A stretch of DNA of 46,551 nucleotides. Source: a virus. A program made the position numbers and the translations under genes. Location of the stretch: positions 1 to 46,551 of IMG/VR virus record IMGVR_UViG_3300048924_000575. The stretch is one strand, 5' to 3'. Each line of letters begins with the position of its first letter. Within the stretch, counting starts at the first letter, position 1. Positions 4,130 to 12,972 of this stretch are shown here, piece after piece. The notes beneath the pieces were generated by a model. It was not told the origin of the DNA and made no database searches. It was given only the letters and a program-made list of their open reading frames with translations.

Positions 4130-4879
4130 TTACGCGGCCAAGCGCTGGAAGGTCATGCGGCGGTGGGCTTCGCGGGCCTTGTGAACGTCATCGGCGCAGT
4201 ACGCGATCAGTTCGGCAATGCGCCCGGCTTTCCAGTAGTCGTAGACCTGGCTGCCGTCGATTTCGCCCTTACCGGGTAGGCCCAGAGCGGTGCAGAGGTT
4301 GTCCAGTGAGATACGGTTACCGTGCCCAGCCCATTGCGTCATGGTGTCGAACACAGAATCGTCCCAAGGGCGCGCGCCGAAGGGGATAGCCAGCGGCGGC
4401 TGTACGCCTGTGATTACTGCGCGCTGGTAGATGAAGCGAAGGTCAAAGCCGGTCACGTTGTGCCCGATGAACACCGGGCGTCGGTTTGGATCGATGCCTT
4501 GGCGAATCATGTCGAACGCAACTGCCAATGTTTCCGCCTCGGTCGACGCATGGGCGACCACCGGGTCAGCGTCATCGAATGCAAGCCCAATCATCAATAC
4601 TTGGCCGCTGGCGCCATTCAACGCCGTCTTGCGCCATTCCTGCTCGGCCAGCTCAGGCCCCTTCGATTCTTTGAATTTGTTCACCCATTGCGCAATCATG
4701 GCGTCTTTGCTGGTGAACTTGATCTGGTCCTTGTCCGTCAGCCCCAGATCGGCTGCGGCCTGCTCCTTCGTCAGCGTCGAGGGTGCCTTGAAGTTCTCCT
4801 TGGCGTCGTCGATGAAGGCTTGCAGCGCGCCTTCGCGCATGTCCGGCAAGGTTTCGATATCGAGGTAGACGTGGGTCAT
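4130..4879 (-). CDS. DnaQ-fold 3'-5' exonuclease (DEDDy type)
   Basis: A 249-residue protein with the three exonuclease motifs of the DEDDy family: Exo I DIE (D7, E9), Exo II NVTGFD (N141-D146) and Exo III YCADD (Y227, D231). These acidic residues bind two metal ions to remove nucleotides 3' to 5'. It resembles the predicted PolB-like exonuclease group found in phage recombination cassettes. It lies next to SSB and Erf and overlaps the SSB stop by 4 bp. It probably generates or trims single strands for Erf annealing; that role is inferred from context. Confidence 0.85.
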   Translation of the reverse strand: MTHVYLDIETLPDMREGALQAFIDDAKENFKAPSTLTKEQAAADLGLTDKDQIKFTSKDAMIAQWVNKFKESKGPELAEQEWRKTALNGASGQVLMIGLAFDDADPVVAHASTEAETLAVAFDMIRQGIDPNRRPVFIGHNVTGFDLRFIYQRAVITGVQPPLAIPFGARPWDDSVFDTMTQWAGHGNRISLDNLCTALGLPGKGEIDGSQVYDYWKAGRIAELIAYCADDVHKAREAHRRMTFQRLAA

Positions 4880-5202
4880 TGGCTGTCCTTTGATCCAAGC
4901 ATCTGCATTTGGTCTGCGATGATCTCGGTGACGTAGCGCTTACTGCCGTCCTTCTCGTACTCGCGGGTTTGCATGCGGCCCTGAATGAACACCTGTTTCC
5001 CCTTTTTCAGATAGGTGCCGCAAATGCTCGCCAGCTTCCCAAAGGCGGTGACTCGTACCCATTCAGTGCCCTCTTTGCTGCTGGTCTTCCAGCCGCAAGC
5101 CAGAGAAAAGGTGGCTACTTCAGCGCCGTCAGGGGCATAGCGAATTTCCACGTCTTTGCCGAGTCGGCCAATAAACTGGCATTGGTTCAGGTCGTTGCTC
5201 AT
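4876..5202 (-). CDS. ssb: Single-stranded DNA-binding protein
   Basis: A 108-residue OB-fold protein. It begins with the usual SSB pattern (NQCQFIGRLGKDVEIRY), continues TFSLACG and WVRVTAFGKLA, and has the KGKQVFIQGRMQTREYEKDG strand pair. It binds single-stranded DNA during phage replication and recombination. It lacks the flexible linker and acidic DDIPF-like tip of bacterial SSBs, ending GSKDSQ, so it should not recruit host partners through that tip. It overlaps the Erf stop and the exonuclease start, forming one translationally coupled cassette. Confidence 0.93.
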   Translation of the reverse strand: MSNDLNQCQFIGRLGKDVEIRYAPDGAEVATFSLACGWKTSSKEGTEWVRVTAFGKLASICGTYLKKGKQVFIQGRMQTREYEKDGSKRYVTEIIADQMQMLGSKDSQ

Positions 5203-5801
5203 TACGCTGCCTTCTTGAGTTCGCTCATGCGTTGGTTGAAATGCTGGGTGACAAGGCGCTTTTGATCGGCAGCAAGGCCGTTCATCAGCTTCACCAAGTC
5301 GGGGACGGTCGCTGCGGCGTTCATCTGCGCGACGATCATTGCGTCAGCTTCGGTGGCCTGCGATTCAGCTGGCGCCGCATCGTTCTGTGCCTGGGTGGGG
5401 CGAGTGGCCGGGCCGGAGGCTGCATTACCGTCGTCGTCGTCCTGGTAGACGCCTGTGATGGCCGCCAAGGCGTAGCGGCGGGCGTAGGTCATCGCGCTGC
5501 CATAGCCTTGGGGGTCTTGCTTGGGCAGCGGCATGACCAGCGTGTCGGAAATCCATTCCCCGGATTCATGCATCAGCATGGTCGTCAGATGCAGGCGGTT
5601 GTCGTCTGACGGGCTGGCGGTCTGGATGTACACGATGCCGGCAGCGTTCAGGGCCGGTTTGACGGCCTCGATGACGGCGGGAAGGTCGGCGTACTTATTC
5701 TTGAAATGCGGGTTCGTGGCGTCCTTCTTGGCGAACTCCGTAGCCTTCTGGGCTGCCAAGAGTGCCGGGGCGATGGCCTTCATTGATTCGCTGTGTTGCA
5801 T
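5202..5801 (-). CDS. erf: ERF-family single-strand annealing recombinase
   Basis: A 199-residue protein of the ERF family (P22 Erf type). Recognisable features are the N-terminal helix MQHSESMKAIAPALLAAQ, the NPHFKNKYADL segment, and the core MHESGEWISDTL with GYGSAMTYARRYAL. ERF proteins anneal complementary strands and support recombination and circularisation of phage DNA. An Ala/Pro/Gln-rich linker from about residue 125 leads to a small helical C-terminal part. It is encoded directly before SSB and exonuclease, a standard recombination module. Confidence 0.92.
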   Translation of the reverse strand: MQHSESMKAIAPALLAAQKATEFAKKDATNPHFKNKYADLPAVIEAVKPALNAAGIVYIQTASPSDDNRLHLTTMLMHESGEWISDTLVMPLPKQDPQGYGSAMTYARRYALAAITGVYQDDDDGNAASGPATRPTQAQNDAAPAESQATEADAMIVAQMNAAATVPDLVKLMNGLAADQKRLVTQHFNQRMSELKKAA

Positions 5802-7534: not shown

Positions 7535-7716
7535 GCCGCCGCCTTCACGTCTTCCGCATACATCTGGCGGTACTGCTGGAACTTGTCGTTGAATGCCAAC
7601 TCCAGACGCATACGCATGTCCGGGTCGAACGCGAGCCAGCAAGCGGCAAGCTTCTGAACACCGTTTCCGCCATACTTCTGCATCGTGGCGACTGCTTGGG
7701 TAGTCGTGATTTCCAT
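7531..7716 (-). CDS. Small hypothetical protein
   Basis: A 61-residue helical protein (MEITTTQAVATMQKYGG start) with a GGAG ribosome site 8-9 bp before the ATG. It is the first gene after the structured non-coding block (7.8-8.3 kb) in the direction of transcription, so its expression depends on transcription passing through that block. Function unknown. Confidence 0.6.
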   Translation of the reverse strand: MEITTTQAVATMQKYGGNGVQKLAACWLAFDPDMRMRLELAFNDKFQQYRQMYAEDVKAAA

Positions 7717-7821
7717 GTTTTGCTCCGTGTGGGATAAGTAAGCCGCTCAGGACGACGCACACCAATTGCCCATAGTGGAGGGCTTTGGCTTTTTCGCGTG
7801 TTGAAACGTTGAGGGGGGGGT

Positions 7822-7929
7822 GATAAGGCGCCCAAGGCCTTACCTTGGTATGCGCCGGCCTGAGTGGCTGTAGGGGTGCCGGTTACGTTTCCGGCGTCAG
7901 TTGGCGACTGACCGACTCGTGGCCTTATC
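7822..7929 (-). ncRNA. Structured RNA element A (multibranched fold)
   Basis: A 108-base segment closed by an 8-bp stem (7822-7829 with 7922-7929, GATAAGGC/GCCTTATC). Inside are three clear hairpins: 7827-7856 (GGCGC plus CCAAGG arms, loop CCTTA), 7878-7895 (GCCGG/CCGGC) and 7896-7912 (GTCAGT/ACTGAC, loop TGGCG). A further helix, GAGT (7862-7865) with ACTC (7915-7918), encloses the last two. No open frame of useful length covers it. Strand is inferred from the leftward operon, since base pairing alone does not fix it. Confidence 0.5.
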
Positions 7930-7944
7930 CGCAGCTTGCCAAGC

Positions 7945-8041
7945 CCAAATTCAAAGGCGCGGAGGCAACGTCTTTATTACTCGTCTGCCAGCGAGTCGCG
8001 GGTGGTAGGGGTTTATTGCCCTAACGTGGTCCGCAATTTGG
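7945..8041 (-). ncRNA. Structured RNA element B (cloverleaf-like fold)
   Basis: A 97-base segment. Two outer helices (CCAAATT 7945-7951 with AATTTGG 8035-8041; GCGGA 7959-7963 with TCCGC 8030-8034) enclose two hairpins: 7979-7996 (ACTCG/CGAGT) and 8006-8023 (TAGGG/CCCTA). A 4-bp ACGT/ACGT helix (7968-7971, 8024-8027) can form between them and the outer stem. Size and branching resemble a tRNA cloverleaf, but there is no T-loop or D-loop consensus. Transcription strand inferred. Confidence 0.45.
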
Positions 8042-8067
8042 TTGATGGCCCCGGATGCGGTCCCGGG

Positions 8068-8155
8068 TTGAAACGTCGAAGTGAGATTCGAACTCACGGC
8101 ATCCAGACGCTGTTCGGTTCGCTGGACTCTGACCCAACTAGACTAACGTTCCGAT
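8068..8155 (-). ncRNA. tRNA-like element C (irregular)
   Basis: On the minus strand there is a perfect T arm (GTGAG, loop TTCGAAT, CTCAC; 8081-8097) and a D arm with a 3-bp stem and GG-containing loop AGTTGGGTC (8128-8142). Between them a 6-bp stem (8101-8106 with 8122-8127) closes a 15-base loop instead of the normal 7, without U33. The acceptor arm (GAACGTT, 8145-8151) pairs with 8070-8077 only if one T is bulged and 3 bases separate it from the T arm. It is not a standard tRNA: either decayed or a mimic. Confidence 0.5.
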
Positions 8156-8202
8156 GCAACTAGCGAAGCGCATCTGCCCATCGCCTGGGCGGTACTGCTG
8201 CC

Positions 8203-8288
8203 ATCAGTGCAAGCCCCTGCTCCGCGTCCTACTCGATTCGGACTGCGCATAGACAGGGATGCGCTACCCTGCAAGGGCCTGCACTGAT
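8203..8288 (-). ncRNA. Structured RNA element D
   Basis: An 86-base segment closed by a 13-bp helix with one mismatch (9 bp ATCAGTGCA/TGCACTGAT at 8203-8211 and 8280-8288, then GCCC/GGGC). It continues TGC/GCA and encloses two hairpins: GTCC/GGAC (8226-8243) and GCGCAT/ATGCGC (8245-8264). The outer helix is too long for chance. Adjacent extra hairpins lie at 8153-8174 (GATGC/GCATC), 8176-8190 (GCCCA/TGGGC) and 8292-8308 (GCCGC/GCGGC). Strand inferred from the operon. Confidence 0.5.
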
Positions 8289-8316
8289 AGCGCCGCGTTT
8301 CGTGCGGCTACGGCTG

Positions 8317-8592
8317 CTATGCAGCACCAGGGGGAGATTGTTCCGGGACAGGCAGCAGATCCTTGATCCGCTGATTGCCGTCGCCACCGTAGGGGATGCA
8401 GTCTTTATCCCAGCCGGGCGGAAGTTTGTCGGTCAGCGTGATTTCTCCGACAACATAAATCTGTACGTCTTTGCGGGAATCTGATGCTGCTTCCTTCCAA
8501 TCCTGGCGCGCAATGCCCCACGCATCGTCTTCGTTGTCAGCCTCGACAACCATGTCCAAATCAAGCAACGTGTTCACTCGATACAGCGGCAT
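8317..8592 (-). CDS. Hypothetical phage protein
   Basis: A 91-residue protein (MPLYRVNTLLDLDMVVEAD start), acidic, with a beta-rich N-terminus and a short Pro/Gly-rich C-terminus. AAGGAG lies 7 bp before the ATG. It is the only protein gene between the two groups of structured RNA elements, so it may simply be carried along. The N-terminal strand pattern recalls small DUF-type proteins of phage RNA/ligase neighbourhoods, but I cannot assign a function. Confidence 0.6.
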   Translation of the reverse strand: MPLYRVNTLLDLDMVVEADNEDDAWGIARQDWKEAASDSRKDVQIYVVGEITLTDKLPPGWDKDCIPYGGDGNQRIKDLLPVPEQSPPGAA

Positions 8593-8615
8593 CTCGTTCT
8601 CCTTATTAATCGGTA

Positions 8616-8745
8616 TGAATCCTGAAAGAAGCGGGCGAGATTCGAACTCGCGCGCAGCGTATACCGGTGATCGATCGGCACGCCCAGGATAAGAATCGTC
8701 CCCGAGGCTCTAACCTGACTGAGCTACCGCTTCTTTCAGGATTCA
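8616..8745 (-). ncRNA. tRNA-like element E with 19-bp closing stem
   Basis: A perfect 19-bp inverted repeat (TGAATCCTGAAAGAAGCGG at 8616-8634 and its complement at 8727-8745) brackets a tRNA-like body. On the minus strand: acceptor GAAGCGG/CCGCTTC, TA, a canonical D arm (GCTC, loop AGTCAGGTTA, GAGC), then 55 bases, then a perfect T arm (GCGAG, TTCGAAT, CTCGC). The 55 bases fold as two hairpins: a 7-bp stem with a 10-base loop (ACGATTCTTA) and a second with a 9-base loop (ATCGATCAC). No standard 5-7-5 anticodon arm is visible and CCA is not encoded. Confidence 0.6.
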
Positions 8746-8760
8746 CGTGTCTGCGTCCTG

Positions 8761-9297
8761 TCACGGCGCCAGAGACTTGGGCGATTCGTCCTTAAGAATC
8801 GTTTTCTTGAATCCAACGCCAGCAGCAACGTGATAGATCACAATTCCTTCTGGATCCATGAAACCAGGAGCAGCACGGCTACCCAAAAGCGAAAGCTCGT
8901 CTATCACGCACTCCACCGTGCTTGCGCGCATCACTCCGCGATACAACTCAGGAACTACCAAACAGCATGCCGGCCGTATGCTGTCATCCGACCAGCGCGA
9001 TACGTTGAAAAGTGAAAACCGCTTGTCTGGTACCCCATAACGCCGTTGAATTCCAGCCCCCCACCATTCACCGAAATGTCGGCCGGGACCCAGCTTCAAG
9101 AGTTCGCTACGGTTTTCCTGCGCCCAAGCAGCAAACCCATAGTTGTCGGATTCAGGAGTAATCCACCGGGTACGGCTGCCTACGAACATGTCTCCGTGTT
9201 CGTTAATTGCGATTTGGGCATTTGTCCCGTCGATCTTTTCGGTGATGATGCATTCCCTAGAAAACCTGGCCATTTTTGGGAAATCTTCGAATTCCAT
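8761..9297 (-). CDS. Small RNA ligase (Rnl2-like nucleotidyltransferase fold)
   Basis: A 178-residue protein with the ordered motifs of ATP-dependent RNA ligases (RNA_ligase family): motif I EKIDGTN with the AMP-accepting Lys21, motif III FGEWWG (75-80), motif IIIa FSLFN (94-98), motif IV PEGIVIYH with E150, and motif V lysines (KK at 164-165, K169). It should seal 3'-OH/5'-phosphate RNA ends. It lacks a separate C-terminal domain. Start 9297 is chosen for AAGGAG 6 bp upstream; an ATG at 9315 is possible. It is the first gene of the pL operon, flanked on both sides by structured RNA elements, which suggests these are its substrates or partners. Confidence 0.85.
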   Translation of the reverse strand: MEFEDFPKMARFSRECIITEKIDGTNAQIAINEHGDMFVGSRTRWITPESDNYGFAAWAQENRSELLKLGPGRHFGEWWGAGIQRRYGVPDKRFSLFNVSRWSDDSIRPACCLVVPELYRGVMRASTVECVIDELSLLGSRAAPGFMDPEGIVIYHVAAGVGFKKTILKDESPKSLAP

Positions 9298-9329
9298 TCC
9301 TATCTCCTTGTTCATTCGTCAGCTCGCTC

Positions 9330-9434
9330 ATAGAACGGGCTGGCGGATGAATTCCGGAGCAGCGCGCTACCTGGCTGTTCCCGCTAATGCGGCTCCAGGT
9401 AGGGCGCTGCCTCTTCAACCAAGCCGCGTTCTAT
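9330..9434 (-). ncRNA. Structured RNA element F (long hairpin in pL leader)
   Basis: A 105-base fold in the pL leader, 32 bases before the ligase start. The outer stem ATAGAACG/CGTTCTAT (9330-9337, 9427-9434) continues as GGCT/AGCC. An inner hairpin has GCAGCGC/GCGCTGC (9359-9365, 9404-9410), one G-G mismatch, then CTACCTGG/CCAGGTAG (9367-9374, 9395-9402), and a terminal CCGC/GCGG hairpin with loop TAAT. About 15 paired positions in the inner arm make it very stable. It could be a leader control structure, an antitermination element or a ligase substrate. Confidence 0.55.
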
Positions 9435-9553
9435 AGCTCCACTCCCGGAGCCAGGCGCGACCTGGTAGCCGTCGATCTTTGTTCAGGGGTAACGGGTTGC
9501 GCCCTGGGCCTAGCCACCTTGCGGTCATCGGCCTGTTCTATCGCTTTGCTGGT

Positions 9554-9565
9554 TGTTAAAGAGCG
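9554..9565 (-). promoter_or_regulatory. boxA antitermination element (nutL-like)
   Basis: On the minus strand the sequence CGCTCTTTAACA matches the boxA consensus of lambdoid nut sites and rRNA leaders, where NusB/S10 bind the RNA. It lies about 105 bases downstream of the predicted pL start. No boxB hairpin with a GNRA-type loop is obvious next to it, and no Arg-rich N-like protein is recognised. Antitermination may instead be RNA- or host-driven. Confidence 0.75.
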
Positions 9566-9677
9566 GTGCTGCTGGTCCTGCTTCCCATGCCCACCCGACT
9601 TTGTGGCGGTAACGTCCTCTCGCTGGGATACGAGGCCGAGGGCTTGTTGCGGCGCCGTGTTTGCAGCGCATGGGTGA

Positions 9678-9706
9678 ATAATCGCATTTGCGATTAAGTA
9701 TGTCAA
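9678..9706 (-). promoter_or_regulatory. pL early promoter
   Basis: Minus-strand -35 TTGACA (9701-9706) is a perfect consensus. It is separated by 17 bp from -10 GATTAT (9678-9683). Both overlap the two CI operators. It drives the leftward operon beginning with the RNA ligase; the expected start is near 9671, giving a leader of about 370 bases. Confidence 0.85.
9680..9695. promoter_or_regulatory. Left operator 1 (CI/Cro binding site)
   Basis: AATCGCATTTGCGATT, a perfect two-fold site: half-sites AATCGCA and TGCGATT around a 2-bp centre. It overlaps the -10 of pL, so repressor binding would block the left operon. The same half-site occurs in the operators beside cI. Confidence 0.85.
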
Positions 9707-9720
9707 GCGCAAATGCGATT
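9705..9720. promoter_or_regulatory. Left operator 2 (CI/Cro binding site)
   Basis: AAGCGCAAATGCGATT, the same half-site pattern with one change. Its centre is 25 bp from left operator 1, and it overlaps the last bases of the -35 of pL. The spacing suits cooperative binding of two repressor dimers. Confidence 0.8.
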
Positions 9721-11832: not shown

Positions 11833-12906
11833 TTAGGATTTCTTCCATTGCCCTGACTCGTTATCCCCGAGCCTGGAGCCCGTCCATACCACCTGGCCAA
11901 GAACTCGCACGAGAGGACCGTTCTCTAGGGAAATGTCTGGATATAAAGGATTGAAAGACCGGGCCACCCACTTTTGGGTCAACTTGTCGCGCGCCACGGT
12001 CTTCACGATCATCTTGCCGTCATAGTTGATGGCATAGACGCCGCCGCCGGCCAAGTCGCGCAGCGTCAGGTCTTCGTTTGGGACAACGAGCAGGGCAGCG
12101 CCATCCTTGATGACGGGTTCCATGCTGTCGCCTTTTGCATACACCACGCGAGCCTTACCGGCGTCGGCGCCCACAGACCGTAGGAACGATCTACGGAACT
12201 GGATCACGCCGGTTTGAGTCTCGTCGTCGTTCTCGATCCCATCGCCCGCCGCCAAGCGAACATCCGATAGTTCCGGAACCTTCTCGAACTTGTCGTTTGC
12301 GGCGTGCGGTTCGCCTGGTCCTACATTAGCCACCACGCCTTCCTGCGTGCTGATCCGAAGCTTGGGCTCGCGCTCAGCCTGTGCCGTTGTCCGACCACCC
12401 TCCCAAGGAGCTGGCAACCCGGGGATCCGCATGGGGAATGCGTCGTCAGCGTGGTCCATGTCGACCAGGCCGCCGGGCTTGTGCGAACGCAAGGCCGCCG
12501 CAGTTGGATTTGGCAGTTGGGCCGCTTTAGGCGCAACGTCGACGCCAAGCTTTAACTGCGCAATCGCTAAGGCCAAAGCCCCCTGTAAAGCGTTCAGTTG
12601 AGCGGGTGGAAGCGCGCGCACATCCTGTTCGGAAATGTCGGGGAAGGGCCAGGCTGCTGCCGGCTCACGAATTGTGGAGGGCGCGGCGCCAGCGCCTCCC
12701 TTCTTAGGCCCAGCGCCGTCCATCAGCCATTCGACGTTCACATTCAAGGCGCGCGCCAGGTCCAGGAACAGGGACGACCCCTTATTCCTCCCGTTTTCGA
12801 TGCTGGCAATCGTGGATTGCCCCGCCCCTACGGCTTTCGCCAATTGGGCCTGGGATAGTCCTGCTTCGGTCCTTGCTTCAGCAAGGCGGTCTTTAAGGGC
12901 GCTCAT
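11833..12906 (-). CDS. cI: CI-type phage repressor (HTH_XRE + S24 peptidase)
   Basis: A 357-residue repressor. Residues 1-65 form an XRE helix-turn-helix (GLSQAQLAKAVGAGQSTIAS at 16-35). A long low-complexity linker runs to about 215. The C-terminal S24 self-cleavage domain has catalytic Ser261 (GDSMEP) and Lys302 (MIVKTV), with an Ala-Gly pair at 220-221 as the likely cleavage point. It should maintain lysogeny and be cut upon RecA activation. It is longer than typical (about 230 aa) because of the linker. Start 12906 lacks a ribosome site and abuts an operator, which fits a leaderless mRNA as in lambda cI. Confidence 0.92.
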   Translation of the reverse strand: MSALKDRLAEARTEAGLSQAQLAKAVGAGQSTIASIENGRNKGSSLFLDLARALNVNVEWLMDGAGPKKGGAGAAPSTIREPAAAWPFPDISEQDVRALPPAQLNALQGALALAIAQLKLGVDVAPKAAQLPNPTAAALRSHKPGGLVDMDHADDAFPMRIPGLPAPWEGGRTTAQAEREPKLRISTQEGVVANVGPGEPHAANDKFEKVPELSDVRLAAGDGIENDDETQTGVIQFRRSFLRSVGADAGKARVVYAKGDSMEPVIKDGAALLVVPNEDLTLRDLAGGGVYAINYDGKMIVKTVARDKLTQKWVARSFNPLYPDISLENGPLVRVLGQVVWTGSRLGDNESGQWKKS

Positions 12907-12921
12907 ATCGCAATTGTGATA
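12906..12921. promoter_or_regulatory. Right operator a (next to cI)
   Basis: TATCGCAATTGTGATA: half-sites of the same type as the left operators around an AT centre. It overlaps the first base of cI and the likely pRM -10 (CACAAT on the minus strand), so occupancy should shut down cI itself, like lambda OR3. Confidence 0.75.
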
Positions 12922-12929
12922 CTTACAGC

Positions 12930-12945
12930 AATCGCAATGGCGCTT
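12930..12945. promoter_or_regulatory. Right operator b (middle)
   Basis: AATCGCAATGGCGCTT, with one good and one diverged half-site. Its centre is 24 bp from operator a and 23 bp from operator c. It overlaps the -35 of pR and could position CI to activate pRM. Confidence 0.75.
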
Positions 12946-12972
12946 GCGTGATAAGCGCAATTGCGATTAAAT
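12944..12972 (+). promoter_or_regulatory. pR early promoter
   Basis: -35 TTGCGT (12944-12949), 17-bp spacer and -10 TTAAAT (12967-12972). The predicted start falls at or next to the cro ATG (12978), and there is no Shine-Dalgarno before that ATG, so cro is probably translated from a leaderless transcript. Confidence 0.6.
12953..12968. promoter_or_regulatory. Right operator c (next to cro)
   Basis: AAGCGCAATTGCGATT, close to the consensus, lying between the -35 and -10 of pR, 10 bp before the cro ATG. It is the best candidate for the tightest CI site (OR1 equivalent). Confidence 0.8.

What the first reader, a model, noticed from the sequence alone, without database searches (positions are those of the whole stretch)
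7822..8308. Half-kilobase ornate RNA block with at least ten strong hairpins and no ORF
Stems such as ATCAGTGCA/TGCACTGAT, GTCAGT/ACTGAC, CCAAGG/CCTTGG, GCGCAT/ATGCGC and nested outer helices fill nearly every base. Density and nesting recall large ornate phage RNAs (GOLLD, ROOL), which also lie near tRNAs, but size and sequence appear different.
Basis: partly seen in the sequence, partly recalled or inferred. Interest (0 to 1): 0.72.

Follow-up and report, generated by a model that had tools for sequence, protein, structure and literature searches.

The report
Array of tRNA-mimic RNAs in phage
This stretch of a bacterial virus does not code for protein; it encodes a row of separately folded RNAs, some shaped like transfer RNAs without the part that reads the genetic code, and close and distant relatives of these RNAs lie unannotated in many other phages.

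Summary
The block is real, but the RNA strand is the minus strand (folding z -3.49, 0 of 100 shuffles; plus strand z -1.17, 13 of 100). It is not one RNA. It is part of a row of stem-closed modules in the early leftward operon of a temperate phage related to Achromobacter prophages, downstream of a boxA site and upstream of Erf. Module C (8043-8206) recurs in 10 genomes of 268 with strong scores, and its helices covary. Module A (8616-8745) is a tRNA mimic: acceptor stem extended to about 20 bp, D-arm, T-arm, no proper anticodon arm, no encoded CCA. At the same site, relatives carry a different tRNA-like RNA, here called K. K was found in 87 modules with a 7-bp acceptor stem, D-arm, T-arm and a variable insert, with overwhelming covariation. 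K is not in Rfam 15 and lies in unannotated gaps of isolated phages phiKX1, phiKX2, DMCA and QDWS595. GOLLD, ROOL, Y RNA and tmRNA membership fail for the window. Most likely these are stable RNAs that mimic tRNA for host factors; the decoy function is inferred, not shown.

The parts
9554..9564 (-). boxA (GCTCTTTAACA), nut/rrn-type antitermination signal, followed by a GCAA-loop hairpin at about 9507-9533
   Evidence: 11 distinct boxA sites in held loci, each followed by a short hairpin; 6 of 11 loops are GNRA.
9294..9411 (-). Conserved structured leader in front of the RNA ligase gene
   Evidence: 93% identical over 118 nt in the Achromobacter marplatensis prophage L082; inverted repeat 9359-9374/9395-9410.
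8761..9315 (-). RNA ligase gene (184 aa, PF09414, phrog_548); an exchangeable neighbour, not a constant part
   Evidence: absent by tblastn from 58 array-related loci.
8616..8745 (-). Module A: tRNA-like domain (8627-8733) inside an about 20-bp helix made of the acceptor stem plus a 12-13-bp extension
   Evidence: RF00005 42.5 bits; 19-nt arms 100% complementary; fold z -4.70; same helix with other interiors in relatives.
8317..8592 (-). 91-aa gene of unknown function between modules A and B
   Evidence: 90% identical relative in L082; no PHROG or Pfam match.
8292..8308 (-). Small border hairpin GCCGC-ACGAAAC-GCGGC
   Evidence: Conserved border 8285-8337; L253 has GCTGC...GCAGC, a two-sided change.
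8200..8291 (-). Module B: about 21-bp outer helix holding two hairpins; outer helix differs in sequence but stays paired in relatives
   Evidence: Fold z -6.09, 0 of 200 shuffles; L244, L247, L253, L276.
8043..8206 (-). Module C: P1 8200-8206/8043-8049, P2 hairpin 8176-8190, P3 hairpin 8050-8067; P1 5' strand overlaps the 3' strand of the module B helix
   Evidence: Covariation on 6 and on 13 sequences; overlap with a helix of the preceding module in 7 of 13.
8070..8152 (-). Second tRNA-like element nested in module C: T-arm GTGAG-TTCGAAT-CTCAC, 7-bp acceptor GGAACGT/ACGTTTC separated from the T-arm by 4 nt, irregular anticodon region
   Evidence: and sequence; no Rfam or ARAGORN match; weakest part energetically.
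7869..7999 (-). Module D-like stretch with hairpin CCGG-AAACGTA-ACCGG
   Evidence: 84% identical over 133 nt in genome G023 (L252).
7742..7868 (-). Module E: long hypervariable outer helix around 2-3 hairpins and the core CAACACGCGAAAA
   Evidence: Fold z -5.79; relatives L082, L247, L256, L262, L253.

Best explanation
The finding lies in the early leftward (pL-type) operon of a temperate phage of the Achromobacter group. The transcript starts at the 9.7-kb promoter region, passes a boxA site and then alternates small genes with a row of independent, stem-closed, untranslated RNA modules, before reaching the Erf recombination gene. Shown here: the RNA strand, the modules, the covariation of modules C and K, the conservation and exchange of modules, and the tRNA-like anatomy (7-bp acceptor, D-arm, T-arm, no regular anticodon arm, no CCA) of module A and of the K family that takes its place in relatives. 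Inferred: the start site and antitermination that let polymerase read the untranslated RNA; that the modules persist as stable RNAs, either within the transcript or cut out by host enzymes that act on long helices and tRNA-like folds (RNase III, RNase P); and that they work by presenting a tRNA elbow and acceptor to host tRNA-binding proteins, most likely as decoys for tRNA-cleaving defence or toxin nucleases or for tRNA-processing factors. The variable insert in place of the anticodon arm would set specificity.
For: Minus-strand folding and per-module z-scores. RF00005 match with about 29 extra nt, and RF00005 matches for tRNA-like modules in three relatives L259, L261, L273 while ARAGORN calls none in the window, L259 or L261 (L273 was not given to ARAGORN). 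T-arm hairpins: 15 on the RNA strand of 24 array segments, 0 on the opposite strand, shuffled mean 0.23, maximum 2 of 300 (part of the loop pattern was chosen after seeing examples). Module C covariation. K family covariation: acceptor pairs 5-7 paired in 86, 84 and 83 of 87 with all four Watson-Crick types against shuffled means of 35-48; 98.7% of cells paired, 87 double changes, slid controls at most 44%; RNAalifold predicts the same 17 pairs unaided. CCA at 74-76 in 0 of 88. Same outer helix of module A holds K in L247 and L253 and L365. Early-operon setting next to Erf or RecT/RecE in window, G068, G185, G213, G191. Isolate phages carry K, some beside tRNA or tmRNA genes.
Against: No expression, processing or binding data exist here. 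The K model does not match the window, so module A is linked to K by position and anatomy, not by sequence. 10 of 24 array segments hold no T-arm hairpin. The RNA ligase, which would fit a tRNA-repair story, is absent from 58 array-related loci. K modules have no constant gene neighbour. Extended acceptor helices would hinder ordinary RNase P cleavage (established knowledge). Type C modules of relatives fold only slightly better than shuffles (z -0.9 to -1.8).
Confidence: 0.5

Rival explanations
1. Cis-acting elements only: the modules are intercistronic structures that direct processing, protect the early mRNA from exonucleases or keep Rho off untranslated gaps; they have no function once cut out.
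For: They sit directly between small early genes and in front of ribosome-binding sites; outer helices are long and often perfect while interiors vary; boxA at the operon start.
Against: Pure stability elements would not need D-arm and T-arm sequence conservation or a 7-bp acceptor; K modules also stand in varied places near terminase, DNA polymerase or integrase genes.
Confidence: 0.3
2. DNA-level function: the borders are short conserved boundary sequences used by the Erf/RecT annealing proteins to exchange modules; folding is a by-product.
For: Borders are conserved while interiors and even whole genes are swapped; in L244, L248 and L251 only the 3' half of the module A helix remains beside a gene; Erf or RecT lies in the same operon.
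Against: Compensatory changes in helices of C and K, and strand-specific T-arms and folding energy, show selection on RNA. Both may hold at once.
Confidence: 0.08
3. Decayed tRNA genes without function.
For: Irregular anticodon regions and no CCA (sequence).
Against: Decay would not keep acceptor, D and T helices paired by two-sided changes in dozens of divergent phages.
Confidence: 0.03
4. Antisense immunity RNA like phage P4 CI RNA or P1 C4 RNA (recalled), with repeated complementary segments on one transcript.
For: Left CCATCA, middle TGATGG and right CCATCA can pair in two ways; overlap of the two helices in 7 of 13 strict cases against 62 of 2600 random positions.
Against: No 14-nt complementarity of the array to the rest of the window and only two 13-mers; no C4 match in Rfam; the shared segment is only 5-7 nt; the phage has a protein repressor.
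Confidence: 0.05

Closest known systems
Bacterial Y RNAs of the YrlA type
   Same: Non-coding RNA with a tRNA-like domain; a role of YrlA's tRNA-like domain as competitive inhibitor of an anticodon nuclease has been proposed (PMC7790460, passages read). The extended stem of Y RNAs is recalled.
   Different: No Ro60/TROVE gene in any of 15 genomes or records examined; no Rfam Y RNA match; modules come in rows and with variable inserts.
GOLLD and ROOL RNAs
   Same: Ornate phage or prophage RNAs near tRNA genes, function unknown (PMC12286853, passages read).
   Different: No Rfam match; modules of about 90-200 nt instead of one RNA of hundreds of nt.
tmRNA, including the permuted form RF04321
   Same: tRNA-like domain without an anticodon (recalled); found in the same RNA islands of phages PHB04 and QDWS595.
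   Different: No tmRNA match in the window; K has a D-arm hairpin; a tag reading frame in K was not sought.
Phage tRNA genes
   Same: 7-bp acceptor, D-arm and T-arm, RF00005 score above the gathering score for module A.
   Different: No regular anticodon arm, no CCA, not called by ARAGORN.

Membership tests
tRNA (functional, RF00005) | 7-bp acceptor, D-arm, T-arm | tested here: met
   Module A, 42.5 bits against a gathering score of 29; note that the gathering-mode scan of the whole window, with faster filters, listed nothing.
tRNA (functional, RF00005) | 5-bp anticodon stem with 7-nt loop | tested here: not met
   ARAGORN finds no gene; the region between D-arm and T-arm is about 29 nt too long and has no regular arm (sequence).
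tRNA (functional, RF00005) | CCA end encoded or added | tested here: inconclusive
   Not encoded in module A (sequence) or in any of 88 K modules; addition after processing cannot be tested here.
GOLLD | Match to the family model | tested here: not met
ROOL | Match to the family model | tested here: not met
Y RNA (YrlA) | Partner Ro60 (TROVE, PF05731) | tested here: not met
   0 of 15 genomes or records; the control rang in Deinobacterium chartae.
tmRNA | Match to a tmRNA model or ARAGORN tmRNA | tested here: not met
   None in the window.
C4 / P4 CI antisense immunity RNA | Complementarity to own early transcript | tested here: not met
   No complementary stretch of 14 nt or more outside the array; imperfect pairing was not tested.
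Module C family (defined here) | P1, P2, P3 with covariation | tested here: met
   Window row; the window is one of the six training sequences of model R1, so its 114.5 bits are no independent test; five genomes outside the training set score 48.8-78.8 bits.
K family (defined here) | Match to model R2 | tested here: not met
   No match in the window at E up to 1; K sits in the same outer helix in L247, L253 and L365.

The most novel reading that the evidence does not exclude
Phages carry a natural tRNA-scaffold system: a constant tRNA-like frame (acceptor, D-arm, T-arm) that stabilises the RNA and docks it on tRNA-binding proteins, with exchangeable inserts in place of the anticodon arm. The early operons of Achromobacter-type prophages are cassette rows of such RNAs, traded by single-strand annealing, and they serve as counter-defence against tRNA-cleaving systems.
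Probability: 0.2. Interest if true: 0.92.

Novelty: new variant of a known kind. Interest (0 to 1): 0.77.

Why it matters
A covarying tRNA-like RNA family without an anticodon arm, absent from Rfam 15 and unannotated in isolated phages, is a direct experimental entry to RNA-based counter-defence and to how phages exploit tRNA recognition. It also offers an explanation for some long 'empty' gaps in phage early operons and tRNA islands.

Tried and rejected
One GOLLD/ROOL-like RNA: rejected by Rfam scans. Structure on the plus strand: not supported by folding. DNA similarity to deposited phages for the block itself: none (the L082 block, also none). RNA ligase as constant partner: tried through 80 ligase loci, no general link; one of them, L004, gave the first K module. 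Ro60 partner: 0 of 15. Self-antisense: nothing beyond what chance would give. Model R1 beyond the family: order 3 of 399 and class 4 of 369 at E up to 0.01, each count including G001; the five other places read by eye as coding sequence. In the family search (16 of 268 at E up to 0.05) ten genomes have strong matches, L278 looks real by eye, L277 and L283 look coding, and L279-L282 were not inspected. A conserved gene neighbour of K: none found with a crude ORF caller. In one search, 13 of 15 rows were used; two weak window matches (41344, 21270) were dropped as chance.

One of 88 modules did not fit the D-arm register (87 counted). A5 used 44 of the 88, the shorter ones (at most 118 nt between anchors) that fit the register. 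PHB04's K-like module was judged by eye and is not found by R2. Claims of absence from print rest on ten searches of one open-access library (one search is no paper search), seen as listings and abstract starts; passages were read in PMC2864571, PMC12286853 and PMC7790460 only.

Full report
1. Observation. Folding decides the strand: 7822-8308 as minus-strand RNA gives -202.3 kcal/mol against a shuffled mean of -180.6 (z -3.49, 0 of 100), as plus-strand RNA z -1.17 (13 of 100). Module-sized pieces of the minus strand do better: B 8199-8292 z -6.09, E 7742-7868 z -5.79, A 8616-8745 z -4.70; the piece 8043-8145 alone does not (z +0.41). No ORF of at least 60 aa on the minus strand lies inside.

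2. Setting. The window is a virus record of 46,551 bases. The left arm is read leftward and carries an S24-type repressor at 11833-12960, an RNA ligase at 8761-9315, Erf at 5202-5801 and an exonuclease-like protein at 4130-4879. A promoter-like region with operator-like repeats lies near 9680-9720 (and sequence, by eye), then boxA at 9564-9554. Eleven distinct boxA sites occur in the loci held; each is followed within tens of nt by a hairpin, and 6 of the 11 loops are GNRA, as in nut or rrn leaders (established knowledge).

3. Relatives. No deposited phage has DNA similar to the block. The 91-aa neighbour led to a prophage contig of Achromobacter marplatensis B2. In that genus 17 of 43 genomes match pieces of 7700-9700. 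The matches are mostly short conserved borders separated by unlike interiors. The helix of module A (19-nt arms, 100% complementary in the window) encloses a tRNA-like domain in the window, K-type RNAs in L247 and L253 and L365, another T-arm RNA in L082 and almost nothing in L249; in L244, L248 and L251 only its 3' half remains, beside a gene.

4. Module C. Six sequences gave 98.9% paired cells with four two-sided pairs, slid controls at most 48.9%. A model found strong matches in ten genomes of 268 in the family. Over 13 rows nearly all P1, P2 and P3 cells stay paired while pair types change, for example P2 CG 7 and GC 5, P1 CG 10 and TA 3, with one non-standard cell (two chance rows dropped). 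The 5' strand of its P1 is shared with the helix of the module before it in 7 of 13 by a strict rule, against 62 of 2600 random positions, so the two outermost helices exclude each other there. The surroundings are phage early regions: Erf in G068, RecT/RecE in G185 and G191, RecT plus exonuclease and integrase in G213.

5. tRNA mimicry. Module A matches RF00005 at 42.5 bits with an insert between D-arm and T-arm; L259, L261 and L273 carry like modules at 45.8, 42.4 and 38.7 bits. ARAGORN finds none in the window or in L259 and L261 (L273 not given). In 24 array segments (8678 nt) perfect T-arm hairpins number 15 on the RNA strand and 0 on the other; shuffles average 0.23, at most 2 in 300. 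Fourteen of the 24 segments have one. Part of the loop pattern was chosen after seeing examples.

6. The K family. By motif alone 88 modules were found among all loci then held; 87 fit one register. Acceptor pairs 5, 6 and 7 from the inside are formed in 86, 84 and 83 of 87, with all four Watson-Crick types; pair 8 in 69 and pair 10 in 52, so the stem is 7 bp as in tRNA, and is longer in a subset (28 of 88 have at least 6 further uninterrupted pairs). The D stem (loop GANGGA in most) is paired in 85-87 of 87. The insert is 38-174 nt, median 77; CCA follows in 0 of 88. On 44 aligned members, 98.7% of cells pair with 87 double changes, and RNAalifold predicts the same 17 pairs. No Rfam family other than tRNA or tmRNA elsewhere in the locus matches the K stretches of L004, L150, L272, L418, L419 or L420. 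Model R2 hits 20 of 268 genomes of the family at E up to 0.01 and 2 of 398 drawn from the phylum at E up to 1e-4. Named isolates with K in unannotated gaps: Alcaligenes phage vB_Af_QDWS595, Komagataeibacter phages phiKX1 and phiKX2, Caulobacter phage DMCA. QDWS595 and Bordetella phage PHB04 also carry tRNAs and a permuted-type tmRNA nearby. R2 does not match the window.

7. Mechanism. Shown: conserved, strand-specific RNA structure; modular exchange; tRNA-like frames without a regular anticodon arm. Inferred: transcription through boxA-type antitermination, survival as stable RNA, engagement of host tRNA-binding proteins, decoy action. A decoy role for a tRNA-like domain has been suggested for YrlA (PMC7790460, passages). 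I give about 0.9 to a conserved structured RNA array, about 0.5 to trans-acting tRNA mimics and about 0.3 to decoys in particular.

8. Known kinds. GOLLD, ROOL, C4, tmRNA and Y RNA membership fail in the window. It works most like a tRNA-mimicking non-coding RNA, a known kind; the families, the row arrangement and the variable insert are, as far as ten library searches and Rfam 15 go, not described.

Noticed in passing
window 8761-9315 (minus): Minimal RNA ligase (PF09414, phrog_548) next to tRNA-like RNAs; at least 80 viral contigs carry relatives, so it is common and not tied to the array.
   Followed up: partly
L263:1246-1318 (minus): Rfam family RF02917 Burkholderiales-2 matches the strand opposite to a boxA site and its following hairpins in a related prophage; the family may be modelled on the wrong strand and be a nut-like leader.
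   Followed up: partly
L259:1461-1720, L260, L261: In three Achromobacter genomes module C is followed by an ORF of about 24-27 codons with an amphipathic-looking product, like a small membrane peptide or type I toxin.
   Followed up: no
L417:2157-2528 and L418:71-447: Phages PHB04 and QDWS595 encode tmRNAs (tags ANDDYIRAAA and ANDNVYAAAA) not annotated in the features shown.
   Followed up: partly
L417:2791-3878: Second long gap of phage PHB04 holds a stretch like module D of the prophage arrays (CGAAAGCGGATGC, GCGAGTAGGA, GGAGACGTAACC).
   Followed up: no
L297:13182-14189 (plus): A queuine tRNA-ribosyltransferase-like gene (phrog_887) lies in the same prophage region as an array in G023.
   Followed up: no
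window 9679-9720: Inverted repeats AATCGCATTTGCG/CGCAAATGCGATT around a TTGACA box, probably operators of the early leftward promoter.
   Followed up: no
L274, module before module C: tRNA-like module whose outer helix GCCATCACATAGGCGG is also that of K modules in L311, L343 and L382 from other contigs.
   Followed up: no
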